Shown here piece by piece: positions 42,911-63,993 of a stretch of 64,000 nt of DNA. The translations under genes and the position numbers were made by a program. Position 1 is the stretch's first letter, and every line of letters begins with the position of its first letter. This DNA is from Allobosea robiniae (GTDB lineage Bacteria; Pseudomonadota; Alphaproteobacteria; Rhizobiales; Beijerinckiaceae): the NCBI RefSeq assembly GCF_900102525.1, contig NZ_FNBZ01000001.1, forward strand, positions 1 through 64,000. Reading direction: 5' to 3'. The notes under the pieces are model-generated. The model saw nothing but the letters and a program-made list of their open reading frames with translations, was not told the origin of the DNA and did no database searches.

Positions 42911-42974
42911 AGGAACCCGCAACGAAGAAGACCAACGCCGGCGCAACGGCGCAAATCAGAAGAGGGGAATGAGC

Positions 42975-48815: not shown

Positions 48816-48903
48816 GATCAAAGCGAAGGAAATGCCGTGCCGGCGCGATCTGCGGTGCACGGACAGTTTCGCCGCCGGCTAGTCTCCTGGCAAGGAGACC
48901 GTG

Positions 48904-50257: not shown

Positions 50258-50274
50258 CATAAGCCCGGCTTATG
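50258..50274. promoter_or_regulatory. CATAAGC-N3-GCTTATG palindrome upstream of ABC/oxidase operon
   Basis: This perfect 7-3-7 palindrome lies 102 bases upstream of the binding-protein start at 50376. The same core (CATARG-N5-CTTATG) recurs at 60675-60691 in the hydantoinase/oxidoreductase divergent promoter, and T-N11-A spacing fits LysR proteins. The LysR gene at 53906 is the obvious candidate to bind both. Confidence 0.6.
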
Positions 50275-50375
50275 GGCCCGGAAAAAATCCGTCTTTTCGC
50301 TCGCTGCGCCGGGCACGGATGCTGCATGGGCCGGTTCGGAAAGACGAGCGAATTCGAAGCAAAAAGGGGAATGGG

Positions 50376-51122
50376 ATGATCGGGTTCAGGACAACGGTCG
50401 CGGCGCTCGCCATGATGGCCGCCGCGGCGACCGCCCAGGCACAGACGGTCTACAAGGTCGGTTCGACACCGACGGGCACGCCGTTCACCTTCCTCGACGC
50501 CAAGACGAACACCATCCAGGGGATGATGGTCGACGTGATCGAGGAGATCGGCAAGGACGCCGGTTTCAAGGTCGAGATCCAGCCGATGCAGTTCTCGACC
50601 CTGATCGCCTCGCTGACCTCCGGCAAGATCGATATCATTTCCGCCGCCATGTACGGCTCGCCGGAGCGCGCCAAGGTCGTCGACTTCAGCGAGGACGTCT
50701 ACGCTTATGGCGAGGGTCTCGTGGTCAAGTCGGACGACTCCAAGGATTATGCCGGCTTCGCGGATCTCAAGGGCAAGAAGGTCGGCGGCCAGATCGGCAC
50801 ACGCTATATCGACGCCCTCAAGGCCTCGGGCGCGCCAGCCGAGGTCGGTGCCTATGACAGCCTGCCCGACATCCTGCGCGACGTCTCCAACGGCCGGCTC
50901 GATGCCGGCATCGGCGACTATCCGATCCTGGCCTACAACCTTGCGCAGGGGCGCTTCCCGCAACTGCGGCTGGTCAAGTCCTACAAGCCCTCGGTGCCGG
51001 GACCGATCAACATCGCCGTCAAGCAGGGCAATGCCGAGCTGCTGGGGAAGATCAACACCAGCCTCGCGAACATGAAGAAGGACGGCCGCTTCGAGACGAT
51101 CCTGAAAAAGTGGGGTCTCTGA
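50376..51122 (+). CDS. Amino acid ABC transporter substrate-binding protein
   Basis: The 248-residue SBP family 3 protein begins at the ATG at 50376 (MIGFRTTVAALAMMAAAATAQAQ), a Sec signal peptide with cleavage after AQA. An in-frame upstream ATG at 50319 would place 19 charged residues before the signal peptide and is rejected. The mature part has GTPFTFLDAKTNTIQGMMVD and DIISAAMYGSPERAKVVDFS. A single permease and ATPase follow, then a FAD oxidase that probably acts on the imported ligand. Confidence 0.92.
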   Translation: MIGFRTTVAALAMMAAAATAQAQTVYKVGSTPTGTPFTFLDAKTNTIQGMMVDVIEEIGKDAGFKVEIQPMQFSTLIASLTSGKIDIISAAMYGSPERAKVVDFSEDVYAYGEGLVVKSDDSKDYAGFADLKGKKVGGQIGTRYIDALKASGAPAEVGAYDSLPDILRDVSNGRLDAGIGDYPILAYNLAQGRFPQLRLVKSYKPSVPGPINIAVKQGNAELLGKINTSLANMKKDGRFETILKKWGL

Positions 51123-51141: not shown

Positions 51142-51798
51142 ATGACGCATTTTCTCAGCCAGGTTCCGACATACCTGCCGATCCTGATGCAGGGTGTCTA
51201 CCTCACGCTGCTGGTCACGCTCGGCGCCTTCGTCCTCGCGACGGCGCTGGGCCTGGTCTGGGCCTTCATGCGGGTGAGCGGCATCGCGCCGCTCGCCTGG
51301 ACGGCGCGCACGATCATCGTCATCGTGCGCGGCATCCCGGGTATCGTCACCCTCTTCTACATCTATTTCGTGCTGCCGGATCTCGGCCTGTCGCTGACGG
51401 CCGTCCAGGCCGCCATCATCGGCCTCGGCATCGCCTATTCGCCCTATATGGCCGAAGTCTTCCGCTCCGGCATCGAGGCGATCGACCGCGGCCAGACGGA
51501 AGCAGCGCTTTCGATCGGCATGGGCTGGGGCCTGCTGATGCGGCGCGTCGTGCTGCCCCAGGCGATCCGCGTGGCGCTGCCGCCCTATGGCAGCACCATG
51601 GTCATGCTGCTCAAGGATTCCTCGCTCGCCTCGACGATCACCGTCGCGGAGCTTTCTCTGCAGGGCAAGCTGCTGGCATCCTCCACCTTCGAGAACACCA
51701 CGATCTTCACGATGGTCGCCCTGATCTACCTCGCGATGAGCCTGCCGCTCACCGCCTTCAACGGCTGGCTCGAACGCCGCCTGAGGCAGGCCCGATGA
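51142..51798 (+). CDS. Amino acid ABC transporter permease
   Basis: The 218-residue HisM/GlnP-type permease has membrane segments and the docking loop [20 protein letters not shown]. As it is the only permease gene of the set, it should work as a homodimer. It overlaps the ATPase gene by 4 bases. Confidence 0.92.
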
Positions 51799-52529
51799 GC
51801 ATCATCGAACTGCGCAATATCAGAAAATCCTTCGGCACGGTCGAGGTCATCCACGATGTCTCCTTCTCGGTCGAGAAGGGCGAGGTGGTCTGCATCATCG
51901 GACCGTCCGGTTCCGGCAAGTCGACCCTCCTGCGCTGCATCAACGGCCTAGAGACCTATCAGGGCGGCTCGATCGCGGTACACGGGCAACGGGTCGACAC
52001 AGGATCCTCCGCCATCCGGCAGTTGCGGACCCGCGTCGCCATGGTGTTCCAGCGCTTCAACCTGTTTCCACACCGGACAGCACTGGAAAATGTCGCGGAA
52101 GGCCCGATCTTCGTGAAGAAGGAGCCGCGCGAGGAGGTGCTGAAGCGCTCGCGGGATCTGCTCACCCGTGTCGGGCTCGGCGCCAAGATCGACGCCTATC
52201 CCGCCCAGCTCTCCGGTGGCCAGCAGCAGCGCGTCGCGATCGCGCGTGCGCTCGGCATGAAGCCCGACGCGATCCTGTTCGACGAGCCGACATCGGCGCT
52301 CGATCCGGAGCTCGTCGGCGAGGTCCTCGCCGTCATGCGGTCGCTCGCCGACGAAGGCATGACGATGGTCGTCGTCACCCATGAGATGGGCTTTGCCCGC
52401 GAGGTCGCCGACCGCGTGCTGTTCCTCGATGGTGGCGTCCTCGTCGAAGAAGGGCCGCCCGACGAAGTTCTAAGCCGTCCGCAGAACCCGCGTACGCAGG
52501 ATTTCCTGCGGCGCATCCTGCCTTCGTGA
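51795..52529 (+). CDS. Amino acid ABC transporter ATP-binding protein (GlnQ-like)
   Basis: The 244-residue ATPase has Walker [20 protein letters not shown]-loop QRFNLFPH, signature [16 protein letters not shown] and Walker [13 protein letters not shown]. It is coupled to the permease gene by an ATGA overlap and followed after 10 bases by the FAD oxidase gene. Confidence 0.94.
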
Positions 52530-52539
52530 GGACATACGC

Positions 52540-53850
52540 ATGGCTCGCCTGACCGGCCCGTTCTTCAGCGATGATGCGGTCGACACACCCTTTTGGTGGG
52601 ATGCTGCGAAACCGGCAGCCCCGGCAGCGACCGAACTGCCGGCGCAGAGCGAAGTCGTGATCGTGGGGGCCGGCTTCACCGGGCTCAACGCCGCGCTGAC
52701 GCTGGCCCGGGCCGGCAAGCAGGTCACCGTTCTGGATGCGGAAGCTCCCGGCTGGGGCGCCTCCTCCCGCAATGGCGGCATGCTCGGCCCGGGCTGGGCC
52801 ACCTTCGACACCGCGATGGCCTATGGGCCGGACAAGGCGCGTGCCATCGTCGAGGAAAGCTTCCTCGCCTTGCAGCACGTCAAGGATGTGGTGGCCCGCG
52901 AAGCCATCGCCTGCGACCTTGCGGTGGTCGGCTATTTCCGGGGCGCGATGACGCCGCGCCTCTACGACGCGATGGGGCGCAATCTCGACCGCATCCGGCA
53001 GGTCATGCCCTGCGATGCCTATCTGGTCCCGCGGGCCGAGCAGCTGGGCGAGATCGGAACCGAGCTCTATCATGGCGGCCTTGCCATGCCCGGCTATGCC
53101 GGCCTGCACCCGGCCCGCTATGTCGCCGGCCTTGCCGAGGCCGCACGCCGCCTCGGCGTGCAGATCATCGGCGGTGCCCGCGTCACGGCCATCGCATCGC
53201 AGGCCGGTGGGTTCGGCCTCTCCGTCGGCGGGCGGACGATCACGGCGAAGCAACTCCTGGTCGCGACCAACGGCTATACCGGAGCGCTCCTGCCCTTCCT
53301 GCAGCGGCGGATCATTCCGATCCGCAGCGCGCTGATCGCGACCGGACAGCTACCGGCCGAGGTGATGGATCGCCTCATGCCGAAGCGGCGCATGCTGGCG
53401 GGCAGCCAGCGCGTCGTGACCTATTACCGCCCCTCGCCCGACGGGACCCGGATTCTCTTCGGCGGGCGCGTGCTCAAGGTGACCGGCGAGAATGTCGGCC
53501 ATGCCAATGCTACCCATCTGCGCAAGCAGATGCTGCAGGTCTTCCCCGAGCTGGAACGGACGCCGATCACGCATTACTGGCACGGCCAGACCGGCTTCAC
53601 CTTCGACAAGCTGCCCCATCTCGGCGAGCAGGAGGGCATCTTCTACGCCTGCGGCTACAATGGCACCGGCATCGCGCGGGCGAGCTGGTTCGGCCACAAG
53701 ATCGCGCAGCGCATGCTCGGCAGCACGGATGCGCCCAGCGCCTATGCCGACCTGCCCTTCAGCAGCCGGCCGCTCTATTACGGCAAGCCATGGTTCCTGC
53801 CGCTCGCCGTGCTCTTCTACGAAATGCGCGATCGCTGGGACCAGCGATAA
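52540..53850 (+). CDS. PuuB-like FAD-dependent oxidoreductase
   Basis: The 436-residue flavoprotein resembles gamma-glutamylputrescine oxidase and related N-alkyl amino acid oxidases. It has GAGFTGLNAALTLARAGKQV, GASSRNGGMLGPGW and, near the C-terminus, CGYNGTGIARASWFG and YGKPWFLPLAVLFYEMRDRW. It is in the same operon as an amino-acid ABC importer, 10 bases after its ATPase, so it should oxidise the imported compound. It is related to the protein at 37370 but in a different module. Confidence 0.86.
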   Translation: MARLTGPFFSDDAVDTPFWWDAAKPAAPAATELPAQSEVVIVGAGFTGLNAALTLARAGKQVTVLDAEAPGWGASSRNGGMLGPGWATFDTAMAYGPDKARAIVEESFLALQHVKDVVAREAIACDLAVVGYFRGAMTPRLYDAMGRNLDRIRQVMPCDAYLVPRAEQLGEIGTELYHGGLAMPGYAGLHPARYVAGLAEAARRLGVQIIGGARVTAIASQAGGFGLSVGGRTITAKQLLVATNGYTGALLPFLQRRIIPIRSALIATGQLPAEVMDRLMPKRRMLAGSQRVVTYYRPSPDGTRILFGGRVLKVTGENVGHANATHLRKQMLQVFPELERTPITHYWHGQTGFTFDKLPHLGEQEGIFYACGYNGTGIARASWFGHKIAQRMLGSTDAPSAYADLPFSSRPLYYGKPWFLPLAVLFYEMRDRWDQR

Positions 53851-53905: not shown

Positions 53906-54838
53906 ATGTCTGCGCTATCGCCGTTGATGGGACGACAGATGCGGGCGCGCCAACTCGAAGTCTTCTGCACGCTGATGCGCTGCGGCACGGTGACCGGCGC
54001 GGCCGCGATGCTGAACATCTCGCAGCCGGCCCTGAGCCAGATCCTGCTCCATGCCGAGGACCAGCTCGGCTTCAAGCTGTTCAACCGCGTGCGCGGCCGG
54101 CTGGTGCCGACGCAGGAGGCCGAGGAGCTCTACTCCCAGGCCGAGCACATCTTCGGCGAGCTCGATGCGCTCCGGCGCCGGACGATCGACATGCGGCACG
54201 GCCGCACCGGCCTCGTCCGGCTCGCCGCCTCAGCGCCGCCCTCCATGTCGATCGTGCCCCGCGCCCTGACTGCCTTCAGGGAGGAGCATCCCGAGATCGT
54301 GGTGCGCTCGCTGATCGCCTCGCAGACGGCCATCGTCGAAATGCTGCGCAATGGCGAGGTGTCGCTCGGCATCGCCATGAACAACCTGCCTCATGCCGGC
54401 ATCCATGCCGAGACGGTGGGGCGCGCCACGCTGGTCTGCGTCGTCTCGGCCGAGCATCGGCTGGCGGGGCTGGACTGCGTCCGTTTCGCCGATATCAGCG
54501 ACGAGACCCTAATCTCCTATCGCGCCGACACCTTGCCGGGCCGGCTGCTGGCAGCCTCGGCCGAAGCCGAGGACTTCGCCTATGCACCGGCGATCGAGAT
54601 CGATCTGTCGATCACGGCCCTGCCCTATGTGCGCGACGGGCTGGGCATCGCCATCGTCGACAGCCTCCTGCCCTGGGAGCAGTTCAACGGCGTCGTGACG
54701 CGGCCGTTCGAGCCCCGGATCGAGGTGCCGATCGCGATCCTGACCAGCAATGACCGGCCGCTCTCGGCCAGCCATGAATTGATGCGCGATTGCCTGCGTG
54801 CCGCCTGCCGGGACCTCGGCCGGCCCGGCAACGCCTGA
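53906..54838 (+). CDS. LysR-family regulator
   Basis: The 310-residue protein has a LysR helix-turn-helix (RARQLEVFCTLMRCGTVTGA and LNISQPALSQILLHAEDQLG) and an effector domain from about residue 100. The reading frame also offers ATGs at 53927 and 53939; the last (MRARQLEVF) gives the most typical LysR N-terminus. It is 55 bases after the PuuB-like gene on the same strand and converges on the HcnB-like gene. It is the best candidate to bind the shared palindromes at 50258 and 60674. Confidence 0.86.
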   Translation: MSALSPLMGRQMRARQLEVFCTLMRCGTVTGAAAMLNISQPALSQILLHAEDQLGFKLFNRVRGRLVPTQEAEELYSQAEHIFGELDALRRRTIDMRHGRTGLVRLAASAPPSMSIVPRALTAFREEHPEIVVRSLIASQTAIVEMLRNGEVSLGIAMNNLPHAGIHAETVGRATLVCVVSAEHRLAGLDCVRFADISDETLISYRADTLPGRLLAASAEAEDFAYAPAIEIDLSITALPYVRDGLGIAIVDSLLPWEQFNGVVTRPFEPRIEVPIAILTSNDRPLSASHELMRDCLRAACRDLGRPGNA

Positions 54839-54848
54839 ATACGCCGCT

Positions 54849-56231
54849 CTACCCCTCGACAACCGCATCCTGAAGCAAGGCTGCGACCGGAACCGGCCTC
54901 ACCGGGGCCTGACCGCGCAGCCGGCCCGCCGCTGCGACACAACCATGGCCCGCGCTGCCGGCGACGATCTCCGCCGCGGCGATCTCGCAATAGCGTCCCT
55001 GGCAGCGCCCCATGCCGACACGCCCCAGCGATTTCGCGCGATTGACCTCGCCGCCGCCGAAATCGACGGTCTTGCGCAATTCGCCGGCCGTCACGCCTTC
55101 GCACCGGCAGATCACCGTCTCATCAGGCAATCCCGCCGCCGCCTCGGCCGGCCAGGGAAAGGCCTCGGCGACGCCGCGCGCAAAGCGGCTCAATCGCGCG
55201 AGACGGCGCCTGTCGCCCGCCATGTCCGGTGCCGGCAAGCCGAGGTCCTGCAAGCATGCCGCGGCGGCCAGGCGTCCGGCGACCTCAGCCCCGTCGGCGC
55301 CGAGAATCCGGAGGCCGTCACCGGCGAGATAGACGCCCGGTACCGCCCGGCCGACCGCATCGGCCTTCGGCAGCCATTGCCGCCAGGTTTCGTCATAGGC
55401 GAAATCGCAGCCCGCCAGGTCCGCGAGGCGGGTCTCCGCCCGCAGATGCCAGCCCAGGCCGACCGCATCGCAGGCCGTGCGCTGCTCCCGGCCACGGGGG
55501 TCGCGCCAGAGCAAGGCAACCGGGCCACGCTCATCGGCCTCGATACGCTCCAGTTGGACACCGGCATGGTAGAGCCCGGCAAGGCGCCGGCGCATCATCA
55601 ACCCGCGCAAGGCAAAGAGCGGCCTCGCCGACAGACCGGGAAAGCCGCGCAACTGCCGGCGCATGGGCGCCGTGTCCAGCACCGCCGCGATCTCTGCTCC
55701 GGCCTTCAGCAACTGCACCGCGAGCAGGGTCAAGAGCGGCCCCGACCCCGCCAGCACGAGGCGCCGCCCCAGCGCCGCCCCTTGCGCCTTCAAGGCGATC
55801 TGCATCGCGCCGAGCCCGTAGACGCCCGCATTCTGCCAGCCCGGCACGGGCATGACGCGATCCATCGCTCCGGTCGCGAGGATCAGCCGATCATAGGCGA
55901 TCCAGCGCGAACCCGCCCCGTCGAGCACCTGCAACCGCCCGTCCGCGATGGCGACGACGGAGCTGCGTGGATGATGAGCGAGGCGGCCTGTCGCCGCCAT
56001 GGCGTCGAAGGTCTCGTGCAGGGCGACCGCCTTCGCGGTCTCCGAGCCGTAGAGGGTCTCGGGCGGGCGCGTGAAACCTTGCGGCGGCCTGCGATAGATT
56101 TGGCCGCCCGCCCGCTCGCCCTCGTCGATGACAACGGGCTTCAGGCCTGCGGCGACCAATGTCTCGGCGGCGCGGATGCCGGCAGGTCCCGCGCCGACGA
56201 CGACCACGCGCAGTTCGTCGGGACCGCTCAT
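54849..56231 (-). CDS. HcnB/LhpE-like FAD-NAD oxidoreductase subunit with 2Fe-2S domain
   Basis: The 460-residue protein has two nucleotide motifs (VVGAGPAGIRAAETL near residue 12 and VLAGSGPLLTLLAVQLL near 160) and a C-terminal BFD-like 2Fe-2S domain with Cys375, Cys377, Cys410 and Cys415 (ICRCEG and RCQGRYC). It matches the middle subunit of HcnABC hydrogen cyanide synthase, D-hydroxyproline dehydrogenase and opine oxidases. The ATG at 56231 overlaps the HcnA-like stop by 4 bases; a TTG at 56237 is possible. Cyanide synthesis is unlikely, since the context is catabolic. Confidence 0.84.
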   Translation of the reverse strand: MSGPDELRVVVVGAGPAGIRAAETLVAAGLKPVVIDEGERAGGQIYRRPPQGFTRPPETLYGSETAKAVALHETFDAMAATGRLAHHPRSSVVAIADGRLQVLDGAGSRWIAYDRLILATGAMDRVMPVPGWQNAGVYGLGAMQIALKAQGAALGRRLVLAGSGPLLTLLAVQLLKAGAEIAAVLDTAPMRRQLRGFPGLSARPLFALRGLMMRRRLAGLYHAGVQLERIEADERGPVALLWRDPRGREQRTACDAVGLGWHLRAETRLADLAGCDFAYDETWRQWLPKADAVGRAVPGVYLAGDGLRILGADGAEVAGRLAAAACLQDLGLPAPDMAGDRRRLARLSRFARGVAEAFPWPAEAAAGLPDETVICRCEGVTAGELRKTVDFGGGEVNRAKSLGRVGMGRCQGRYCEIAAAEIVAGSAGHGCVAAAGRLRGQAPVRPVPVAALLQDAVVEG

Positions 56232-56539
56232 GGCCAATCGCCGGGAATGTCGGACAGGAGGCGCATGCCTTCAACCAGAGGCGTCGAGCAGGCCCGCAGC
56301 CGCGACCCATCCTCCTGCCAGATCCAGCAATCCTGGCAGGCGCCCATCAGGCAGAAGCCGGCGCGAGCCTCCGGGCCGAACTCCGAGCGGCGCAAAGCGG
56401 GCGCAACCGAGAGCACCGCGCTGAGTACGGTGTCGCCCGCCAAGGCGCGATGCTCGGCGCCATCGAGGACAAAGCGCAGCGGCGCGCGATCCGTTTCCGT
56501 CAGCCGAACCAGCCGCCCCATCGCCTCTCCTGCAGCCAT
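56228..56539 (-). CDS. HcnA/LhpF-like 2Fe-2S protein
   Basis: The 103-residue protein is a small ferredoxin-like subunit with the ligand pattern Cys63-x4-Cys68-x2-Cys71 and Cys84 (GFCLMGACQDC and RAC). It corresponds to the small subunit of HcnABC-type dehydrogenases and carries electrons between flavins. It is 2 bases after the hydantoinase B gene and overlaps the HcnB-like gene by 4 bases, so all four genes form one operon. The first HcnB-like protein in the window (12685) has no such partner. Confidence 0.87.
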   Translation of the reverse strand: MAAGEAMGRLVRLTETDRAPLRFVLDGAEHRALAGDTVLSAVLSVAPALRRSEFGPEARAGFCLMGACQDCWIWQEDGSRLRACSTPLVEGMRLLSDIPGDWP

Positions 56540-56541
56540 GC

Positions 56542-58536
56542 TTATTCCGCCGCCTCGGCATAGGATAGCCGAGGCTGCGGCATCTCGGGAAACCGAACCC
56601 TGGCTGCGGCAAAGGCCTCATCCACACCCTGGGCACCGACCCTGCCGGTCATGCGGCGGAAGATCTCGGTCTTGGCGAAGAAGCGCCAATGGGTCGGCAG
56701 GCCGGCGAGGATCGCCGTCAGCCTGTCATAGGCGCCGGGCGTCCATTGCGCCTCGTAGCCCTCGCGCTCCGGGCCGAAGTGGAAATGGCCGGATACCGGC
56801 GAGCGGTCGGCGCGCCTTGCCTTCGTCGCTTCCTCGTCCAGGACTTCGCCTTGCATGACGACGCCGTAATCCCGCTCCGCCGCTTCCGGCGAAACATAGC
56901 CACGCACGACATCTTCCGCGACGCGCCAGGCCTCGCGGTCGAACGGGTGCCCCCGGCCACCGCCGCCGGCCGAGCGGATTTCCAGCACGTCGCCGGGCTG
57001 GAGGACGGCGGTATCGATATTGCCGAGCCGCCGCGCTTCCGGCTGCCCCGGATTGACCACCATGTCGGAGAGGCCCGCCGCCTTTCCGCCCAGCACGCCC
57101 CAAGGCCGGAAGAAGCTGCGGTCCCGGTTGCGGGCGGTGATGCGGCTGTCGGGCGCGAAGACGCGGAACGCCATTTCGGTGGCAAGGCCACCGCGCCAGC
57201 GCCCGGCGCCGCCGCTGTCCTGCGCCAGCCCGTATTTGACGAATTCCACCGGCGTCTCGGTCTCGGTGATCTCGATCGGCGTGTTCTTGAGATAGGCGGC
57301 ATCTGCGCCGGAGCCGTTGGTGCCGTCGCGATGGGGCATGCCGCCGCCGCCGCCCACCACCGGGTTGACCGCGGCGATGACGGTCCGGCTGGTGCGCTCG
57401 TCGGTGGTCATCACGTTGACGATGCAATTGTTGCCGGCGGGCGCGGCCGGCAGCCGTTCCGGCACAGCCTGGGAGAACGCCCCGAAGATCACCGAGCGCA
57501 GCCGCGCACAGGTCAGCGAGCGCATGCCGACCGCAGCGGGGAAGACCGGGTTCAGGACCGTTCCCTCGGGCGCAATGCAGGTGAAGGGGCGCGTCAGCCC
57601 GGTATTGAGCAGGATCTTCGGATTCAGCGTGTAGAGCACGTAATAGACCCCGACCAGCAGGATCGTATGCCGGGGATTGCCGCCGCTCGGCACGTTGAGC
57701 GAGGAGCCGAGCTGCGGATCGGAGCCGGTGAAGTCCAGCACCGCCTCGTCGCCGCGAATGGTGAGCTTGAGCTTCAGGCGGCAGGGATTGGCCTCGACCG
57801 AGTCCTCGTCGGCGTAATCCGCGAACTCCCAGGTGCCGTCCGGCATGCCGCGCAGCACCTCGCGCGCCTGCGCCTCGGCATGGTCGAGCAGCGCGTCGAC
57901 GCCTTCGAGGAAGGCCTCGCGGCCGAACTTCTCGATCATCGCCAGAACCTTGCGCTCGCCGGTGTTGAGCGCGCCGACCAGCGCCTTGATGTCGCCGATG
58001 TTGAGGTCCGGCTTGCGGACATTGGTCGTCATGATCCTGAGGATCTGCTCGTCGAAGACGCCTTCGTTGACGAGCTTCATCGGCGGGAAGCGGATGCCCT
58101 CCTGATGGATCTCGGTCAGCGCCCGCGAGAGCGAGGCCGGCACCGCGCCGCCCATATCGGTGTTGTGGATGTGGCCGCCGGTCCAGGCGACGATCTCGCC
58201 CTCGTGGAAGACCGGCTTCCAGAGATGGGTGTCGGGCGCGTGGGTGGCGACGAAGCAGGAATAGGGATCGTTGGTGAAGGCGACGTCGCCCGGCTTGTAG
58301 TCGTCGACCATCGCCAGCGCCGGCGCCCAGGACAGCCCGGGGTACCAGGTCGCGCCCAGCTCCATCGGCACGGCGAAGGTGTCGCCGCGCCGGCTGATCA
58401 GCATCACCGTGAAATCCTCCGTCTCCTTGACGAAGGCGGAATGGGCGGTGCGATGCAGCGTATGCGCCATGTTCTCGGCGGCGGCGCGCGCATGATTGGC
58501 GAGCACCTGAAGCTTCATCCGGTCGAACATCGGCAT
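56542..58536 (-). CDS. Hydantoinase B/oxoprolinase-family subunit
   Basis: The 664-residue protein is the B-type subunit of ATP-dependent hydantoinases, 5-oxoprolinases or related carboxylases. It carries the family segments NDPYSCFVATHAPDTHLWKP, GHIHNTDMGG, VGGGGGMPHRDGTNGSGADA and GGAGRWRGGLATEM (quoted in parts). A C-terminal tail of about 90 residues after RDYGVVMQGEVLDE, with THWRFFAKTEIFRRM, goes beyond the usual 520-590-residue length. The ATG at 58536 shares one base with the hydantoinase A stop; a GTG at 58539 is equally possible. It needs the A subunit for activity. Substrate is not fixed by sequence: N-methylhydantoin, 5-oxoproline-like lactams or a ketone are possible. Confidence 0.86.
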   Translation of the reverse strand: MPMFDRMKLQVLANHARAAAENMAHTLHRTAHSAFVKETEDFTVMLISRRGDTFAVPMELGATWYPGLSWAPALAMVDDYKPGDVAFTNDPYSCFVATHAPDTHLWKPVFHEGEIVAWTGGHIHNTDMGGAVPASLSRALTEIHQEGIRFPPMKLVNEGVFDEQILRIMTTNVRKPDLNIGDIKALVGALNTGERKVLAMIEKFGREAFLEGVDALLDHAEAQAREVLRGMPDGTWEFADYADEDSVEANPCRLKLKLTIRGDEAVLDFTGSDPQLGSSLNVPSGGNPRHTILLVGVYYVLYTLNPKILLNTGLTRPFTCIAPEGTVLNPVFPAAVGMRSLTCARLRSVIFGAFSQAVPERLPAAPAGNNCIVNVMTTDERTSRTVIAAVNPVVGGGGGMPHRDGTNGSGADAAYLKNTPIEITETETPVEFVKYGLAQDSGGAGRWRGGLATEMAFRVFAPDSRITARNRDRSFFRPWGVLGGKAAGLSDMVVNPGQPEARRLGNIDTAVLQPGDVLEIRSAGGGGRGHPFDREAWRVAEDVVRGYVSPEAAERDYGVVMQGEVLDEEATKARRADRSPVSGHFHFGPEREGYEAQWTPGAYDRLTAILAGLPTHWRFFAKTEIFRRMTGRVGAQGVDEAFAAARVRFPEMPQPRLSYAEAAE

Positions 58537-60599
58537 CACTCCGCGAAGGTCAGGTGCAGGTTGAGATGGCTGTCGATCCGCGCCGTCGCTCCGGCGGGGA
58601 TGGCGACGGTGGTATCCTCCTGCGCGACGACGGCCGGCCCGGCAAAACGGCTGCCGGGTTTCAAGTCGGCCCTGCGATAGAGACCGACCGCCCTCCGGGC
58701 GCCGCCGGTATGGATCGTCAGCTCGCGCTCCGGTACGGCGACCGCATCGACCGCCTCGGCCTCCGGGAAAGCGAGAGCCGGGCCGGCGCCGATGGCGGAA
58801 AGGCGCAGGTTCACAATCTCGACGCGCCCATCCGGATCATCGAAATCGTAGATGCGCGCATGCGTGCGATGGAACTCGGCGGCAATCGCCGCCGGGTCGC
58901 CGGCTTCCAGCCAGGCCGGCAGCAAGGGGACCTCGATCTCGTAGCTCTGGCCGACATAGCGCATATCCGCCGAGAACCTGAGATCGGCGGGGCCGGCATG
59001 CCCCTGGGCCGCCAGCCAGTTGCGCCCATCCTGGATCATCACGGCCGCTGCCGCCTTCAGTTGCGGCAAAACCGCAGCCGAGAGTTCGGCGAAAAGCGTG
59101 CGGACGAAATCGCCGCGCAGATCGGCGACGAGGCCGCCCAGCGCGGAGACGACGCCCGGCCGGCGCGGCGCCAGCAACCTGTTCATGCCGAGTTCGCGGG
59201 CGAGGAAGGCACCGAGCATCGGGCCGCCGCCGCCGAAGGGCATCAGGGTGAAATCCTTCAGGTCGACGCCAGCCCGCGAGGACAGCTTCTCGACCTCGAC
59301 GAACATCTCGGAAACGGCGATGTCGAGGATCGCCTGCGCCGTGTCCTCCAGCGGCCGCCCGAGCTTTTCGGCCAGCCGCCCGACGGCAGCGCGGGCAAGG
59401 CCCGCATCCATCTTCAACTGGCCATAGGCCATCTCGCTATGGCCGAGCCAGCCGCAGACCACCATCGCGTCGGTGACGGTCGCCTGCTCGCCGCCGCGGC
59501 CATAGCAGGCCGGCCCCGGCGTCGAGCCCGCCGATTCCGGTCCGACGCGCAGCACGCCCTGCCCATCGACCGAGGCGATCGAGCCGCCACCGATGCCGAT
59601 CGAGCTCACCGAGACCGAGGGGATATAAAGCGGGAATTCGCCGATCATCTCGCCAGTGCCGTATTGGGGCTCGCCGTCGATGATCAGGGCGAAATCGGCC
59701 GAGGTGCCGCCGATATCGAGCGTCAGGACCCGCTTCTCGCCGGCCTGGCGCGCGAACCAGGTCGCCCCGATGACGCCCGAGGCGGTGCCCGAGAGCAGCA
59801 TGGAGACGCAGGCGCGCTTGCCCTCGGCAGCGTTCATCACGCCACCGTTCGACTTGGTCAGGAGCGCGCGGGCCGGCACGCCACGATCCGCGAGCCGCTG
59901 TTCCAGCGCCGTCAGGTAGCCGGCGATGCGGGGGTGCACATAGGCGTTGAGGATCGCCGTCGTCGTCCGCTCGTATTCGCGGATGACCGGCCAGACCTCG
60001 GCCGAGGTGAAGACGAAGAGCTCCGGAGCCAGCCGGGCGATCGCGGCCTTGACCGCCTCCTCCTGCGCGCCGTCGCGCCAGGCGTGCAGGAAGGCGATGA
60101 CGATGCCGACGGCTCCCCGCGCCTTCGCCGAAGCGACAGCGGCTGCGACCGCGTCGAGATCGGGCCTGACCGTCTCGCGCCCGTCAGAGCGCATCCGGGC
60201 CGGGATGCCGAACACCCTGTCGCGGGTGATGAGCTGCTCCGGGCGGCAGCAGAACAGCGAATAGGTCTCGGGCATGCGCAGCCGGGCCAGCTCGATCACA
60301 TCTTCGAAGCCGGCATTGGTGAAGAGCGCAAGCGGCGCCCCCTTGCGCTGGATGATGGTGTTGACGCCCACAGTCGTGCCGTGGACGAAGCGGGTGACGG
60401 CGCGGGGATCGAGACCCTCACGCTCGGCCAGCAGCGACAGGCCGGTCATCAGCTCGGCGCCGGGATCGTCCGGCGTCGTCAGCACCTTCAGCGACGCAAC
60501 CTGGCCCGAATGCGTTTCGAGCGCGCAGAAATCGATGAAGGTGCCGCCGATATCGACGCCGACCTTCCAGTCCGCACTCGGCACAGTTCCGCCGTCCAT
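58536..60599 (-). CDS. Hydantoinase A/oxoprolinase-family ATPase subunit
   Basis: The 687-residue protein has the actin-like ATP-binding phosphate motifs VGVDIGGTFIDFCAL at residues 13-27 and VLTLDIGGTSADFALI near 300, plus FVHGTTVGVNTII and GPACYGRGG. It uses ATP to activate an amide or lactam carbonyl together with HyuB. The start is the ATG at 60599 (MDGGTVPSADWKVG); the longer frame upstream to 60677 overlaps the operator region. It is the first gene of a reverse operon with HyuB, HcnA-like and HcnB-like and is divergent from the HcnC-like gene. Confidence 0.89.
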   Translation of the reverse strand: MDGGTVPSADWKVGVDIGGTFIDFCALETHSGQVASLKVLTTPDDPGAELMTGLSLLAEREGLDPRAVTRFVHGTTVGVNTIIQRKGAPLALFTNAGFEDVIELARLRMPETYSLFCCRPEQLITRDRVFGIPARMRSDGRETVRPDLDAVAAAVASAKARGAVGIVIAFLHAWRDGAQEEAVKAAIARLAPELFVFTSAEVWPVIREYERTTTAILNAYVHPRIAGYLTALEQRLADRGVPARALLTKSNGGVMNAAEGKRACVSMLLSGTASGVIGATWFARQAGEKRVLTLDIGGTSADFALIIDGEPQYGTGEMIGEFPLYIPSVSVSSIGIGGGSIASVDGQGVLRVGPESAGSTPGPACYGRGGEQATVTDAMVVCGWLGHSEMAYGQLKMDAGLARAAVGRLAEKLGRPLEDTAQAILDIAVSEMFVEVEKLSSRAGVDLKDFTLMPFGGGGPMLGAFLARELGMNRLLAPRRPGVVSALGGLVADLRGDFVRTLFAELSAAVLPQLKAAAAVMIQDGRNWLAAQGHAGPADLRFSADMRYVGQSYEIEVPLLPAWLEAGDPAAIAAEFHRTHARIYDFDDPDGRVEIVNLRLSAIGAGPALAFPEAEAVDAVAVPERELTIHTGGARRAVGLYRRADLKPGSRFAGPAVVAQEDTTVAIPAGATARIDSHLNLHLTFAE

Positions 60600-60673
60600 G
60601 TCTGCTCCTCTTGCTGGCGGCCGGAAGCTGGCACGGAAGCGGCGGCGTGGTCCAAGAGACATGCGGGGCAGGA

Positions 60674-60692
60674 CCATAGGTTGGACTTATGG
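60674..60692. promoter_or_regulatory. CCATAGG-TTGGA-CTTATGG palindrome in divergent promoter
   Basis: The near-perfect 7-5-7 palindrome (one mismatch per arm pair) is flanked by GGCAGG and CCTGCC, so the symmetry extends further with a one-base shift. It lies between the divergent hyuA-like (60599) and HcnC-like (60783) starts and shares the core CATARG-N5-CTTATG with 50258-50274. Confidence 0.6.
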
Positions 60693-60782
60693 CCTGCCGG
60701 CCATCGCGTCTTTGACGGTTCCGTGCGCCCGCGTCAGGTTCGGTGGCGTGGACATTGCCGCCTTTGCGGCAAGAGGCTGGAC

Positions 60783-61925
60783 ATGGATGTGATCGTGCTC
60801 GGCGGCGGCCTGATGGGGACTGCCGCAACCTTCTTCCTGAGACGGCGCGGCCTGAAGGTCACGCTCATCGAACGCAACCGTGTCGGAACGGGCGCCACCG
60901 TCGCCTCCTTCGGCAATATCCGCCGCACCGGGCGCCATCTCACGCAATTGCCGCTGGCGCATCGCTCCCGCACACTCTGGGGCGAGGCGGAGCGCCTGCT
61001 CGGCCGCGACGTCGAATTCCGCTCCACCGGCCATCTCCGGCTAGTCTTCGAGGAGGACGCGCTGGTGGACATGCGCGCCTATGCCGATGCCGCCCGGCCC
61101 TGGGGACTAGAGCTGGAGGAGCTCGGCGCCAACGAGATCCGCGCGCGCTTTCCCGGCCTCGGCCCCGGAGCGATCGCGGCTTCCTTTTCCCCGCGTGACG
61201 GCTCCGGCAATCCGCGCCTGATCGCGCCGGCCTTCGCCGATGCGGCGCGGGGGCTCGGTGCGGAAATCGTCGAGGACTGCGAGGTCGGCCGCATCGAGAA
61301 GACCGAAGCCGGTTTCTGCGTTTCCACCTCGAAGGGCGTGTTCGAGGCCGGGAAGCTGCTCAACACCGCCGGAGCCTGGGGCGCGCGGATCGCCGCGCAA
61401 TTCGGCGAGCCGGTTCCCCTCACCTCGCGCGGGCCGCAGATGGGCGTCACCGAGCCCTTGCCCCATCGCATCCTGCCGGTCGTCGGCATCTGGACCCGCC
61501 GACACGGAACCGACGCCTATTTCCGGCAGGTCGAGCGCGGCAACATCGTCTTCGGCGGCGCGGCCGAACGGGTCGATGTCAATCTCGATCCCGGCCATGC
61601 CAGGGCCGATCCGGCGCGGCTGCCGGCGCAGCTTCGCGCCCTGCGGCAATTGCTGCCGGCCCTGGACAAGGTCTCGGTGATCCGCACCTGGTCGGGCTGC
61701 GAAGGCTATCTCGCCGACATGCTGCCGGTCATGGGTCCATCGGGCACGACGCCTGGGCTGTTCCACGCCTTCGGCTTCAGCGGGCACGGCTTCCAGCTCG
61801 GTCCGGGCGTCGGCGACACGATGGCCGACCTGATCGCGACGGGCGCGACGGACATCCCGCTCCACGACTTCCGGATCGAGCGCTTCGCCAATGCGGAATG
61901 CGGCCGCAACCCCGCCGCGGCTTGA
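60783..61925 (+). CDS. HcnC/LhpB-like FAD oxidoreductase subunit
   Basis: The 380-residue DAO-family protein starts at the ATG at 60783 (MDVIVLGGGLMGTAATFFLRRRG in part) and has the flavin segment GTGATVASFGNIRRTGR and the C-terminal GFSGHGFQLGPGVGDTMADL. The frame is open for over 2 kb upstream, but that part is antisense to hyuA. It is divergent from the hyuAB-hcnAB-like operon and likely supplies the missing third (substrate-oxidising) subunit of the HcnABC/LhpBEF-type dehydrogenase. It converges on the OYE-type gene after 13 bases. Confidence 0.83.
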   Translation: MDVIVLGGGLMGTAATFFLRRRGLKVTLIERNRVGTGATVASFGNIRRTGRHLTQLPLAHRSRTLWGEAERLLGRDVEFRSTGHLRLVFEEDALVDMRAYADAARPWGLELEELGANEIRARFPGLGPGAIAASFSPRDGSGNPRLIAPAFADAARGLGAEIVEDCEVGRIEKTEAGFCVSTSKGVFEAGKLLNTAGAWGARIAAQFGEPVPLTSRGPQMGVTEPLPHRILPVVGIWTRRHGTDAYFRQVERGNIVFGGAAERVDVNLDPGHARADPARLPAQLRALRQLLPALDKVSVIRTWSGCEGYLADMLPVMGPSGTTPGLFHAFGFSGHGFQLGPGVGDTMADLIATGATDIPLHDFRIERFANAECGRNPAAA

Positions 61926-61938
61926 TCCTGACGACCGC

Positions 61939-63993
61939 TCAGAGCTTCGAGCAGAGCCGGTAGGCTTCGTAGATCGCGGAATAGAGGTCCCGGCTCGAGA
62001 CCGCGTCGCCGATGCGGTGCAGGAGGAAGCCTCCCGGCTCCGGTGCAGCCGCCTCCGCGCTGCCGAGCATGAAGGCGATATCGGTCACTCCGTCATTGGC
62101 GGAAAGATGCCGCAGGTCGTGGTAGATCTCGGCGGCCGGCAGCGTGCCGTATTCGACGACGACCTGGCTGGCCTCCACCCTGCTTTCGGCGCCGGTCAAC
62201 TCGTTGCGGAACGTGGCCTGCAGCGCGTTGCCGCGGCGCTCGACCTTCTCCAGCCTGACATCGACGAGCGAGCGGATGCCGAGCTCGGCGAAGCGCTTCC
62301 GGAAGCTCGACTTGTCGATATAGGACATCTCGACGGCAAGCGCGTCGTCGGGCGTCGCGATGCAGACGGCCTTGCCCTGCCGGGCGAGCTGCAGCGCACA
62401 GGACGCCGCCGCCTGCCGGCCGGTGCCGTCATAGACGAGCACGTCGGCCTTGCCCGGCACCGTGCCGGTCAGCACATCCCAGACGCTGTCGCAGAGGTCC
62501 GAACCTTCGAACCAGTCGGTATCGGGAATGCCGCCGGTGGCGACGATCACGAGGTCCGGCATCTCGGCACGGACGGTGTCAGCCTCGGCATAGCAATTCG
62601 TCCGGACATCGACGCCAAGCCGTTCGAGTTCGGCGATGCGCCAATCGACGATGCCGATCAGGTCGCGGCGTTCCTCGGCAGCCGTAGCGACGAGCAACTG
62701 CCCGCCGAGCTTCGCCGCAGCCTCGAACAGCACGACCGAATGCCCCCGCTCGGCGCAGACGCGGGCAGCTTCGAGCCCGGCCGGTCCGCCGCCGACCACC
62801 ACGGCCTTCAGGCGGCGCGAGGCCGGCGCGACCTCATGGCCGAGCACGGTTTCGCGGCCGCTGGCGGCGTTATGGATACAGTTGACCTTCTTGTAGAGAC
62901 AGTACGAGGCGCCAACGCAGGGCCTGATGCGCTCCTCCTCCCCGCGCCTGATCTTCTCGACCAGATGCGGGTCGGCGATATGAGCGCGCGTCATGCCGAC
63001 GAGGTCGACGACCCCCTCGCGGATCGTATGGCGCGCGGTCGCCACGTCGCGGATGCCGCCGGCATGGATCAAGGGCAGCTTCGTCTCGCGGCGGAACTGC
63101 GCCACCGAAGCGAGATAGGGCGCGTTGCGCTGGAATAGACCGGGCATGTTGTCCTCGGCCAGCGCGAGATCGGTATCCATGCGGCCATAGATGCAGTTGA
63201 AATAGTCGATATGGCCTTCGCGTTCGAAGATCCGGGCAAGCTCGAGGCAATCGTCGAAATCCGAACCATCTGCGACACCTTCGTCGATCACGAAGCGGAT
63301 GCCGACGATCGCCTCGTCGCCGACGCGCTTGCGGATCGCCTCGTGGACCATGAGCCCGAAGCGCGCCCGATTTTCCGCCGAGCCGCCGAAACCATCCGTG
63401 CGCTTGTTGGTGCGCGGCGAGAGGAACTGGCCGATCAGATGGCCTCCGGTCACGGTCTCGACGCCGTCGAGCCCGCCCTGCAGGCAGCGCAGCGCCGCAT
63501 CGGCATAGTCCCGGATGATCCGCGCGATATCCGCATCGTCCATCTCCTTGGGGAAATTGCGGTTGCGCGTTTCCCTGACGCGCGACGGCGCCAGCACCGG
63601 AAGCCAGTTCCAGCCATAGGAGGTGGCGCGGCGACCGAGATGCGACACCTGGCACATCACGGCGGCGCCATGGCCGTGAATGCACTCGGACAGCGCCGCC
63701 AGATGCGGAATGATGCGGTCACTGGAGAGATCGAGCTGGCCGCCACCCCAGCTGGAATCCGGCGAGGTCATGGCGGAGCCGCCGATCATCGTCATGGCGA
63801 GGCCGCCGCGGGCCTTTTCCTCGTGATAGCGCTGATAGCGTTCGAGCGGCAGGCCGCCTTCGTCCAGCATCGAGGCATGGCTGGTGCTGACGATGCGGTT
63901 GCGCAGCCGGAGGCTCTTGATCGCGAAGGGTTGAAGCAGGGGGTCGCCGGCGACAGCCGAACGACGATCTGCTGTGACGATGGCCTCGTTCAC
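61939..63993 (-). CDS. Old Yellow Enzyme/TMADH-family N-demethylase-like protein
   Basis: The 684-residue protein has an FMN-binding TIM barrel (residues about 15-345, with GGHLIGQFLSPRTNKRTDGFGGS in part), an iron-sulfur segment and an NAD(P)/FAD Rossmann part (VVVGGGPAGLEAARV near residue 398). This layout is shared by trimethylamine dehydrogenase, dimethylglycine demethylase DgcA and N-methylproline demethylase StcD. The cluster region shows Cys359, Cys365 and Cys372 (CVGASYC and NCIHN), with Ala in the second TMADH cysteine position and a shorter loop. The start is a GTG at 63993, 7 bases from the window edge, so a true start further right cannot be excluded. Confidence 0.83.
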   Translation of the reverse strand: MNEAIVTADRRSAVAGDPLLQPFAIKSLRLRNRIVSTSHASMLDEGGLPLERYQRYHEEKARGGLAMTMIGGSAMTSPDSSWGGGQLDLSSDRIIPHLAALSECIHGHGAAVMCQVSHLGRRATSYGWNWLPVLAPSRVRETRNRNFPKEMDDADIARIIRDYADAALRCLQGGLDGVETVTGGHLIGQFLSPRTNKRTDGFGGSAENRARFGLMVHEAIRKRVGDEAIVGIRFVIDEGVADGSDFDDCLELARIFEREGHIDYFNCIYGRMDTDLALAEDNMPGLFQRNAPYLASVAQFRRETKLPLIHAGGIRDVATARHTIREGVVDLVGMTRAHIADPHLVEKIRRGEEERIRPCVGASYCLYKKVNCIHNAASGRETVLGHEVAPASRRLKAVVVGGGPAGLEAARVCAERGHSVVLFEAAAKLGGQLLVATAAEERRDLIGIVDWRIAELERLGVDVRTNCYAEADTVRAEMPDLVIVATGGIPDTDWFEGSDLCDSVWDVLTGTVPGKADVLVYDGTGRQAAASCALQLARQGKAVCIATPDDALAVEMSYIDKSSFRKRFAELGIRSLVDVRLEKVERRGNALQATFRNELTGAESRVEASQVVVEYGTLPAAEIYHDLRHLSANDGVTDIAFMLGSAEAAAPEPGGFLLHRIGDAVSSRDLYSAIYEAYRLCSKL

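What the first reader, a model, noticed from the sequence alone, without database searches (positions are those of the whole stretch)
54849..61925. Hydantoinase/oxoprolinase pair fused by operon to an HcnABC/LhpBEF-type dehydrogenase
HyuA, HyuB, HcnA-like and HcnB-like genes are packed with overlaps of 1-4 bases, and the HcnC-like third subunit is divergent across one operator. HcnABC-type enzymes oxidise secondary amines or D-amino acids; HyuAB-type enzymes use ATP to open lactams or cyclic imides. Joining them suggests a pathway for a cyclic N-compound: ring oxidation followed by ATP-driven ring opening, or the reverse order. I know of no named pathway with precisely this gene set.
Basis: inference. 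Interest (0 to 1): 0.75.

Follow-up and report, generated by a model that had tools for sequence, protein, structure and literature searches.

The report
Ring-opening, amine-cleaving catabolic gene cluster
Five neighbouring genes, kept together in 79 of 80 related bacterial loci, encode relatives of an ATP-driven ring-opening enzyme and of a three-part amine-cleaving enzyme, and they likely form the upper steps of a larger pathway predicted to digest azetidine-type amino acids such as the plant metal chelator nicotianamine.

Summary
HyuA-HyuB-HcnA-HcnB are packed as one predicted operon; HcnC is divergent across a conserved 19-bp palindrome. All five genes occur in 79 of the best 80 HyuB loci (79-96% identity); the exception is a 6.8-kb contig. 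The palindrome's core, ATA-N9-TAT, is in 91 of 91 HcnC upstream regions scored (1.2 expected). The module lies in a larger cluster (about 28-64 kb): two HAD hydrolases whose best or near-best solved relative is L-azetidine-2-carboxylate hydrolase, an aminotransferase, SSADH, a tartrate/D-malate-type dehydrogenase, an Opp importer and three more flavin amine oxidases. In 67 Bosea genomes HyuB and these HADs co-occur (33/33 v 2/34; 32/33 v 1/34), but HyuAB and HcnABC also occur without each other elsewhere. The enzyme pair has a published precedent, lactam-opine catabolism on pTiEU6 (PMC6733357), so the kind is not new; our paper searches listed nothing on this azetidine-linked form. Most likely HyuAB opens a lactam and the dehydrogenase cleaves the exposed secondary amine. 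A nicotianamine/mugineic-type substrate is the boldest fit, untested.

The parts
54849..56237 (-). HcnB-like alpha subunit (FAD/NAD-binding, BFD-type [2Fe-2S])
   Evidence: Pfam PF07992, PF04324, PF17806; C-x-C-x32-C-x4-C
56228..56539 (-). HcnA-like gamma subunit (ferredoxin-like [2Fe-2S])
   Evidence: Pfam PF13510; C-x4-C-x2-C-x12-C
56542..58539 (-). HyuB, metal-site subunit of an ATP-dependent lactamase
   Evidence: PF02538; D42, H100, D103, H125 align with caprolactamase CapB D41, H99, D101/102, H124
58536..60599 (-). HyuA, ATPase subunit of an ATP-dependent lactamase
   Evidence: PF05378, PF01968, PF19278; best solved relative N-methylhydantoinase 7hk5, E 2.2e-117; D-x-GGT motifs at 16 and 295
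60674..60692 (.). palindrome CCATA-N9-TATGG between HyuA and HcnC, predicted LysR operator
60783..61925 (+). HcnC-like beta subunit (FAD amine dehydrogenase)
   Evidence: PF01266; best solved relative 1y56_B, E 3e-39; Arg-x-Trp motif RTW at 301
53906..54838 (+). LysR-type regulator (start may be 53939)
   Evidence: PF00126, PF03466; a relative in 69 of 80 loci
50259..50273 (.). second ATA-N9-TAT dyad, upstream of the amino-acid ABC/DAO2 genes
50319..51122 (+). periplasmic binding protein, family 3 (start more likely 50376)
   Evidence: PF00497
51142..51798 (+). amino-acid-type ABC permease
   Evidence: ORF, kept next to SBP3 in 7 of 8 Bosea relatives
51795..52529 (+). amino-acid-type ABC ATPase
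   Evidence: ORF, kept in 7 of 8 Bosea relatives
52540..53850 (+). DAO2, FAD amine oxidase
   Evidence: PF01266; NCBIfam best is L-pipecolate oxidase, far below cut-off
48901..50229 (+). DAO1, FAD amine oxidase
   Evidence: PF01266; in 63 of 80 loci
48160..48654 (-). Lrp/AsnC regulator
   Evidence: PF13412, PF01037; in 62 of 80 loci
42969..44588 (+). Opp-type solute-binding protein
   Evidence: best solved relatives 5u4o, AapF, YliB, AgaA; in 38 of 80 loci
44678..45628 (+). Opp-type permease B
   Evidence: ORF; in 50 of 80 loci
45631..46485 (+). Opp-type permease C
   Evidence: ORF; in 55 of 80 loci
46482..48152 (+). Opp-type fused ATPase
   Evidence: ORF; in 59 of 80 loci
42194..42910 (+). 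HAD1, azetidine-2-carboxylate-hydrolase-like
   Evidence: best solved relative 3smv/8ywo/9v14, E 6.7e-43; in 20 of 80 loci
40525..41901 (+). class III aminotransferase
   Evidence: NF004625 856.1 bits, cut-off 729
39662..40510 (+). GNAT acetyltransferase 2
   Evidence: PF18014 and others; only weak matches to solved structures
38673..39341 (-). HAD2, related HAD hydrolase
   Evidence: PF00702; best solved relatives 8hp5 and 3smv
37370..38647 (-). PuuB/OrdL-like FAD amine oxidase
   Evidence: PF01266; the PuuB/OrdL name is recalled
35846..37306 (+). succinate-semialdehyde-type dehydrogenase
   Evidence: TIGR01780 667.6 bits, cut-off 646.35
34789..35832 (+). tartrate / D-malate-type dehydrogenase (TTC)
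   Evidence: TIGR02089 571.7 bits, cut-off 470.4
33313..34776 (+). aldehyde dehydrogenase
   Evidence: several NCBIfam aldehyde dehydrogenase models, each below its cut-off
32830..33183 (+). cupin (probable member)
   Evidence: PF05899
31877..32800 (+). D-2-hydroxyacid dehydrogenase (GhrA-like)
   Evidence: PF02826; NF012013 below cut-off
30690..31595 (-). GNAT acetyltransferase 1 (probable member)
   Evidence: PF18014
28368..29690 (-). M20 deacylase (possible member)
   Evidence: PF01546; in 4 of 80 loci
61939..63993 (-). NADH:flavin oxidoreductase (OYE), optional member
   Evidence: PF00724; in 18 of 80 loci

Best explanation
The five genes encode a HyuAB-family pair and a three-subunit flavin/iron-sulphur dehydrogenase of the opine-dehydrogenase type, arranged divergently around one conserved palindrome, and they likely form the lactam-opening and secondary-amine-cleaving steps of a larger conserved pathway predicted to degrade azetidine-containing, aminobutyrate-chain amino acids of the nicotianamine/mugineic-acid type. 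Shown by the calls: gene families, layout, conserved neighbourhood, conserved palindrome, co-occurrence with azetidine-hydrolase-like HADs. Inferred steps: (1) import by the Opp-type and amino-acid-type ABC transporters; (2) HyuAB phosphorylates and hydrolyses a gamma-lactam closed from a 4-(alkylamino)butyrate unit; (3) HcnABC, with DAO1, DAO2 and the PuuB-like oxidase, oxidises the exposed C-N bonds and releases an amino acid plus an aldehyde or keto acid; (4) the HADs open the azetidine ring to 4-amino-2-hydroxybutyrate; (5) the class III aminotransferase gives malic semialdehyde, SSADH or the aldehyde dehydrogenase gives malate, and the TTC enzyme decarboxylates it to pyruvate. That a ring-opening HAD would invert the carbon and so give the D-malate that TTC-type enzymes use is recalled chemistry, not tested. 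My estimates: one shared pathway that includes HAD-type ring hydrolysis, about 0.75; nicotianamine/mugineic-type substrate, about 0.3.
For: Five genes together in 79 of 80 loci and in the 8 same-genus relatives with HyuB at 92% or more (L041-L048). Palindrome core in 91 of 91 regions, about 87 distinct, against 1.2 expected from base shuffles; the full consensus CCATAAG-N6-CTATGG has one exact match in the genome, this site; a second dyad precedes the SBP3/DAO2 genes in 11 of 11 loci (7 distinct) and the window. Of 23 plasmid records with HyuB at 80-90% I opened 6: all hold the five genes, 5 of 6 also aldehyde dehydrogenase, tartrate dehydrogenase and SSADH, 4 of 6 HAD-IA hydrolase and an Opp-like importer. 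HAD1's best solved relative is L-azetidine-2-carboxylate hydrolase. In 67 Bosea genomes HyuB at 69% or more v HAD2: 33/33 v 2/34; v HAD1-like at 42% or more: 32/33 v 1/34, also where HAD1 lies over 800 kb from HyuB (G065, G009). Metal ligands and ATP motifs kept. The Pseudomonas AZC hydrolase gives 2-hydroxy-4-aminobutyrate and AZC is used through GABA catabolism in Aspergillus (PMC8016842 passages). Dehydrogenases of this subunit type cleave opines (PMC4575208 passages). The HyuAB plus opine dehydrogenase logic is published, as a proposal, for lactam opines (PMC6733357). A distant HcnABC-HyuAB-Opp operon lies in the same genome (L092).
Against: No substrate was tested. HcnABC relatives at 41-54% mostly lack HyuAB: of 17 class-level loci fetched, 1 (L102) has HyuA within its stretch. 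HyuAB relatives at 50-71% mostly lack HcnABC: 12 of the 13 loci mapped (L049-L056, L058, L059, L060, L116 lack it; L057 has it). Within 10 kb of the 80 loci the lower-pathway genes are rare: ALDH 14, SSADH 8, TTC 6, HAD2 2, PuuB 1, class III aminotransferase 0; the short flanks explain this only in part. A close TTC is in 8 of 9 type I Bosea genomes and no type II genome, and TTC and SSADH were not seen in the extended type II loci. HAD1's close solved relatives include entries labelled (S)-2-haloacid dehalogenase; HAD2's similarity is weaker. GNAT2 matched no AZC acetyltransferase. The Opp binding protein's best solved relatives are general peptide-type binders. With one mismatch allowed the operator has 2 genome matches but the backwards control has 4. 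The tree's 3 forced label changes may be one gain and two losses. Identity cut-offs for the Bosea tally were set after seeing the lists, and shared ancestry makes the Fisher values too strong. A seawater host (Pseudosulfitobacter) fits a grass chelator poorly.
Confidence: 0.4

Rival explanations
1. Catabolism of a lactam opine in the succinamopine sense: HyuAB opens the lactam of an N-(carboxyalkyl)amino acid and the flavin opine dehydrogenase splits it into an amino acid and a keto acid; the azetidine-type genes serve a neighbouring, separate pathway.
For: Same kinds of gene plus LysR and ABC transporters on pTiEU6 (PMC6733357 section 15); most subunit motifs of flavin opine dehydrogenases present; HcnC 35.6% identical to a flavin oxidoreductase of a 176,375-bp A. 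tumefaciens record, the length given for pTiEU6; family-3 binding protein with its own dyad; lower-pathway genes rare within 10 kb of the 80 loci.
Against: HADs co-occur with HyuB nearly perfectly across Bosea, also when unlinked; G117 keeps HAD1, HAD2, SSADH and TTC in the same stretch as the pair, and four Rhodobacterales records keep HAD, SSADH and tartrate dehydrogenase beside it.
Confidence: 0.25
2. N-alkyl lactam or hydantoin catabolism (N-methylpyrrolidone, N-methylhydantoin, creatinine type): HyuAB opens the ring and the dehydrogenase demethylates or deaminates the N-alkyl amino acid, SSADH finishing the route.
For: nmpABCDEF has the same logic and an nmpB knockout loses NMP degradation (PMC12866759 passages); best solved relative of HyuA is N-methylhydantoinase; SSADH in the cluster.
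Against: NMP is a synthetic solvent (recalled) while this module is conserved in many genera; the nmp passages read name no HAD, tartrate dehydrogenase or Opp importer. The window proteins were not compared with Nmp sequences.
Confidence: 0.12
3. Free azetidine-2-carboxylate is the only substrate; HyuAB and HcnABC handle side products such as 3-hydroxy-2-pyrrolidone.
For: AZC hydrolase plus GABA-type catabolism is an established AZC route and AZC occurs in Fabaceae (PMC8016842 passages).
Against: Does not explain four flavin amine-oxidising systems and two importers in one cluster.
Confidence: 0.1
4. One reading: a D-proline/hydroxyproline-like ring oxidation by an LhpBEF-type enzyme followed by ATP-driven opening.
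For: Subunit architecture is shared with D-hydroxyproline dehydrogenase (PMC4575208 passages).
Against: No family expected of a hydroxyproline-type deaminase (recalled: dihydrodipicolinate-synthase-like) appeared among the 20 cluster proteins scanned with Pfam; oxidation of a ring amine gives an imine, which needs no ATP-driven opening (recalled chemistry).
Confidence: 0.05

Closest known systems
Succinamopine catabolism region of Ti plasmid pTiEU6 (sacEFGH, hydantoinase A/B pair, LysR)
   Same: HcnABC/Nox-type flavin opine dehydrogenase, HyuAB pair proposed to open lactam opines, ABC import, LysR (PMC6733357, section 15 read)
   Different: Here HyuAB and HcnAB are one tightly packed gene string, found in many alphaproteobacterial genera, with azetidine-hydrolase-like HADs, aminotransferase, SSADH and tartrate dehydrogenase; HcnC is 35.6% identical to the match on the pTiEU6-sized record; the other subunits were not compared
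nmpABCDEF N-methylpyrrolidone pathway
   Same: hydantoin-amidohydrolase pair, amino acid oxidase and SSADH in one cluster (PMC12866759 passages)
   Different: Three-subunit dehydrogenase here; additional HAD, TTC, Opp and LysR genes; sequences not compared
Caprolactamase CapAB / ATP-dependent lactamase family
   Same: Pfam domains, metal ligands and ATP motifs
   Different: 415.3 and 256.1 bits, far below the CapA/CapB equivalog cut-offs of 1000; CapB Tyr136 aligns with Leu
D-hydroxyproline dehydrogenase LhpBEF, HcnABC, OpnDH
   Same: alpha, beta, gamma subunits with mostly the same cofactor motifs
   Different: Gene order gamma-alpha with a divergent beta gene, HyuAB in front
L-azetidine-2-carboxylate hydrolase (Pseudomonas sp. 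A2C; AzhA)
   Same: HAD1 matches it over residues 6-233, 150 bits
   Different: In a large cluster; activity untested; HAD2 more distant
Agropinic/mannopinic acid catabolism genes agaE-G
   Same: Recalled: lactam opine opened, then secondary amine cleaved
   Different: Recalled only; the listing and the passages of one paper did not describe these genes

Membership tests
Flavin-containing three-subunit dehydrogenase (OpnDH/D-HypDH/HcnABC type) | beta subunit of Pfam DAO with N-terminal GxGxxG and an Arg-x-Trp FMN-site motif | tested here: met
   PF01266; GGGLMG at 7; RTW at 301 (a second RPW at 105) (definition from PMC4575208 passages)
Flavin-containing three-subunit dehydrogenase (OpnDH/D-HypDH/HcnABC type) | gamma subunit C-x4-C-x2-C-x11-12-C | tested here: met
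   CLMGACQDCWIWQEDGSRLRAC at 63
Flavin-containing three-subunit dehydrogenase (OpnDH/D-HypDH/HcnABC type) | alpha subunit with FAD site and C-x-C ... C-x4-C (spacing printed as 15-20) | tested here: inconclusive
   Motif present but with spacing 32; Fer2_BFD 26.3 bits against cut-off 26
Flavin-containing three-subunit dehydrogenase (OpnDH/D-HypDH/HcnABC type) | oxidation of an opine with artificial electron acceptors | not testable with these tools
   needs purified enzyme
ATP-dependent lactamase (hydantoinase/oxoprolinase) family | HyuA ATP-site Asp residues (CapA D11, D295) | tested here: met
   D-x-GGT at 16 and 295 (residues from PMC8453981 passages); matched by motif, no CapA alignment was printed
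ATP-dependent lactamase (hydantoinase/oxoprolinase) family | HyuB Asp-His-Asp-His metal site | tested here: met
   D42, H100, D103, H125
Caprolactamase CapAB | NCBIfam equivalog cut-offs | tested here: not met
   415.3 and 256.1 bits against 1000
L-azetidine-2-carboxylate hydrolase | closest relative among solved structures is the AZC hydrolase, over nearly the full length | tested here: met
   3smv/8ywo/9v14, E 6.7e-43, residues 6-233; other close entries are labelled (S)-2-haloacid dehalogenase
L-azetidine-2-carboxylate hydrolase | hydrolysis of azetidine-2-carboxylate | not testable with these tools
   assay needed
Succinamopine (lactam opine) catabolism | Nox-type dehydrogenase, HyuAB, ABC importer and LysR together | tested here: met
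   gene set from PMC6733357
Succinamopine (lactam opine) catabolism | close sequence relation to sac/lec/nox proteins | tested here: not met
   HcnC, the only subunit compared, 35.6% to the match on the 176,375-bp Agrobacterium record
nmpABCDEF NMP pathway | orthology to Nmp proteins | not tested
   Nmp sequences were not fetched

The most novel reading that the evidence does not exclude
This is the bacterial nicotianamine/phytosiderophore catabolic pathway: an importer plus HyuAB, an opine-type dehydrogenase, azetidine-opening HADs and a malic-semialdehyde branch that let rhizobia, azospirilla and other alphaproteobacteria eat plant metal chelators, with HyuAB opening lactam forms of the 4-(alkylamino)butyrate units.
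Probability: 0.28. Interest if true: 0.85.

Novelty: new variant of a known kind. Interest (0 to 1): 0.6.

Why it matters
A 2021 study inferred that a Pseudomonas degrades mugineic acids on grass roots and offered three unvalidated candidate genes (PMC7786132 passages), so the genes for this were open there. If the cluster acts on such compounds, it names the genes, gives a palindrome for finding the regulon, and makes the competition between grass iron uptake and rhizosphere bacteria testable by gene deletion. Even if the substrate differs, the work links a HyuAB clade, an opine-type dehydrogenase clade and azetidine-hydrolase-like HADs into one conserved pathway whose genes, in the annotated records opened, bear only general names such as 'hydantoinase B/oxoprolinase family', 'FAD-binding oxidoreductase' and 'HAD-IA family hydrolase'.

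Tried and rejected
Ideas dropped or weakened: a Mpr1-type AZC acetyltransferase role for GNAT2 (five weak matches, none of that kind; GNAT1 not tested); recognition of the Opp binding protein as a metallophore binder (best matches 5u4o, AapF, YliB, AgaA; nickel/metallophore binders much lower); OYE as a core member (18 of 80 loci); HyuAB as an obligate partner of HcnABC (searches show many of each without the other); free prolines as substrate. The first paper search for agropinic-acid genes listed chemistry and other unrelated papers, the second Agrobacterium papers; passages of one of them did not describe the genes. The rows they listed (capped at 10-20 of up to 681 papers) showed none on bacterial nicotianamine, mugineic acid or azetidine gene clusters of this make-up; that is a statement about those listings in an open-licence library. 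PMC5315480 looked relevant by its listing but its opine dehydrogenase is an NAD-type homologue tied to nickel soils, with no hydantoinase or nicotianamine in the text.

Full report
What is there. The window lies on contig C17 of a 5.28-Mb genome. Its closest named relatives are mostly Bosea. HyuA, HyuB, HcnA and HcnB are packed on the minus strand and HcnC is divergent. Two junctions overlap by 4 bases and one has a 2-base gap. HyuB keeps the four metal ligands shown to be essential in caprolactamase, and HyuA has two D-x-GGT motifs where CapA has its ATP-site aspartates (PMC8453981 passages). HcnA, HcnB and HcnC carry the iron-sulphur, FAD and Arg-x-Trp motifs listed for flavin-containing opine dehydrogenases (PMC4575208 passages), with one departure: the alpha-subunit cysteine spacing is 32, not the printed 15-20.

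Conservation. A scan of named genomes with HyuB found 320 relatives and kept the best 80, at 79-96% identity. All five genes are present in 79 of 80; the exception, L215, is a 6.8-kb contig. Within about 10 kb LysR is in 69, DAO1 in 63, Lrp in 62, the Opp ATPase in 59, HAD1 in 20, OYE in 18, ALDH in 14, SSADH in 8, TTC in 6, HAD2 in 2, the PuuB-like oxidase in 1 and the class III aminotransferase in none. Short flanks and cut contigs limit these counts, but the lower-pathway genes are clearly not next door in most of these loci. Hosts include Bosea, Mesorhizobium, Rhizobium, Neorhizobium, Azospirillum, Ancylobacter, Phyllobacterium and several Rhodobacterales. Of 23 plasmid records with HyuB at 80-90% I opened six, with 12-kb flanks: all six show the five genes and five show aldehyde dehydrogenase, tartrate dehydrogenase and SSADH. 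A 53.7% HyuB relative (Paroceanicella) has no Hcn genes.

Regulation. The HcnC-HyuA intergenic region contains one CCATA-N9-TATGG palindrome, 60674-60692. Of 94 loci given, three were not scored (L193 and L213 had no neighbour within the limit, L215 lacks HcnC); ATA-N9-TAT was found in 91 of 91, with 1.2 expected from base shuffles, and the 10-base form in 76. The consensus CCATAAG-N6-CTATGG has one exact match in the whole genome, this site; with one mismatch it has two, against four for the backwards control, so only the exact site and its conservation carry weight. A second dyad, 50259-50273, precedes the SBP3-permease-ATPase-DAO2 genes and is kept in 11 of 11 loci tested, 7 of them distinct. 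The spacing T-N11-A is that of LysR boxes (recalled), so LysR binding is a prediction.

The larger cluster. From about 28.4 kb to the window end lie an aldehyde dehydrogenase, a tartrate dehydrogenase (TIGR02089, 571.7 bits, cut-off 470.4), an SSADH (TIGR01780, 667.6, cut-off 646.35), a class III aminotransferase (NF004625, 856.1, cut-off 729), two HAD hydrolases, a GhrA-like dehydrogenase, GNAT enzymes, an Opp-type importer and three further FAD amine oxidases. HAD1's best solved relative is L-azetidine-2-carboxylate hydrolase, E 6.7e-43; the next group, 8hp5-8hp7, is labelled (S)-2-haloacid dehalogenase, best E 2.5e-38; the remaining HADs are at E 8.8e-10 or worse. HAD2's best are 8hp5, E 2.8e-18, and the azetidine hydrolase, E 4.3e-16.

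Architecture in other genomes. G117, of another family, has LysR, HcnABC, HyuAB, TTC, SSADH, PuuB, HAD2, M20, GNAT2, AT3, GhrA, HAD1, Opp, Lrp and DAO1 in one stretch. Eight Bosea type II loci were mapped (HyuB about 70%): none has HcnABC; in four with extended flanks (G009, G065, G027, G038) HyuAB stands with two DAO1-like oxidases, HAD2, ALDH, PuuB, Lrp, AT3 and GhrA, and no SSADH or TTC was seen. G078 has HyuAB with HAD1, HAD2, Opp, SSADH and TTC, and a DAO2-like oxidase instead of HcnABC. G323, G200 and G419 have HcnABC with HAD2, PuuB and Opp (G323 and G200 also ALDH, SSADH, TTC and GNAT) and no HyuAB in the 60 kb mapped for each. So HyuAB and HcnABC look like two exchangeable modules of one pathway, and each also occurs without the other.

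Co-occurrence. In 67 Bosea genomes, HyuB at 69% or more is in 33 (9 type I, 24 type II). HAD2 is in 33 of these 33 and in 2 of the other 34; HAD1-like proteins at 42% or more in 32 of 33 and 1 of 34; close HAD1 (90% or more) in exactly the 9 type I genomes; close TTC (87% or more) in 8 of 9 type I and 0 of 58 others, while a TTC paralogue of about 53% is in most genomes (tallied). The identity cut-offs were set at gaps seen in the lists. In G065 and G009 HAD1 is over 800 kb from HyuB, so linkage alone does not explain it. Shared ancestry inside a genus still makes the Fisher values too strong.

Recurrence of the pair. In the same genome a distant operon-like string HcnA-HcnB-HcnC-HyuA-HyuB-OppABCDF at 28-38% identity lies at C17:164420-176640 (L092), and a third place has HyuAB about 9 kb from HcnABC (L091). 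A tree of 40 HcnC proteins, picked from 38 loci, needs 4 changes of the HyuAB-neighbour label, 3 of them forced by well-supported branches, which may be one gain and two losses. Against a fixed pairing, only 1 of 17 class-level HcnC loci fetched has HyuA within its stretch.

Mechanism. The most economical reading is the lactam-opine logic proposed for pTiEU6: HyuAB opens a lactam and the flavin dehydrogenase splits the secondary amine (PMC6733357 section 15). The azetidine-hydrolase-like HADs, aminotransferase, SSADH and TTC add a route from an azetidine ring through 4-amino-2-hydroxybutyrate (reported for the Pseudomonas enzyme, PMC8016842 passages) to malate and pyruvate (inferred). Nicotianamine and the mugineic acids are secondary-amine acids built from aminobutyrate units with an azetidine ring (recalled; biosynthesis passages in PMC7786132) and could use nearly every gene in the cluster. 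This substrate is inferred, not shown, and a seawater host is a difficulty. N-methylpyrrolidone catabolism has the same amidohydrolase, oxidase and SSADH logic (PMC12866759 passages).

Verdict. The kind of module has precedents, so it is a new variant; nothing on its azetidine-linked, widespread form appeared in the rows listed by the ten paper searches made.

Noticed in passing
L092 (G000:C17:164420-176640): A second, distant HcnABC-HyuAB-OppABCDF string with two LysR-like genes upstream in the same genome, at 28-38% identity to the window's proteins.
   Followed up: partly
window 50259-50273: A second copy of the operator-type dyad before the amino-acid ABC/DAO2 genes, kept in the Bosea loci tested.
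   Followed up: yes
window 61939-63993: OYE-type NADH:flavin oxidoreductase convergent with HcnC, present in only some relatives; an ORF that looks LysR-like by eye follows at 64159, outside the window (no family search).
   Followed up: no
G000:C20:145074-147107: A HyuA paralogue (51% identity) whose match has one TGA inside, next to a HyuB paralogue without Hcn genes in its 20-kb stretch.
   Followed up: no
L010 (G000:C17:66032-71347): Just outside the window, ORFs that by eye resemble a type I secretion pair and a large repeat-type protein, then polysaccharide-type genes (no family search).
   Followed up: no
L102 (G379): Three HcnC-like and two HcnB-like genes and a HyuA gene within about 17 kb, beside an Opp importer.
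   Followed up: no
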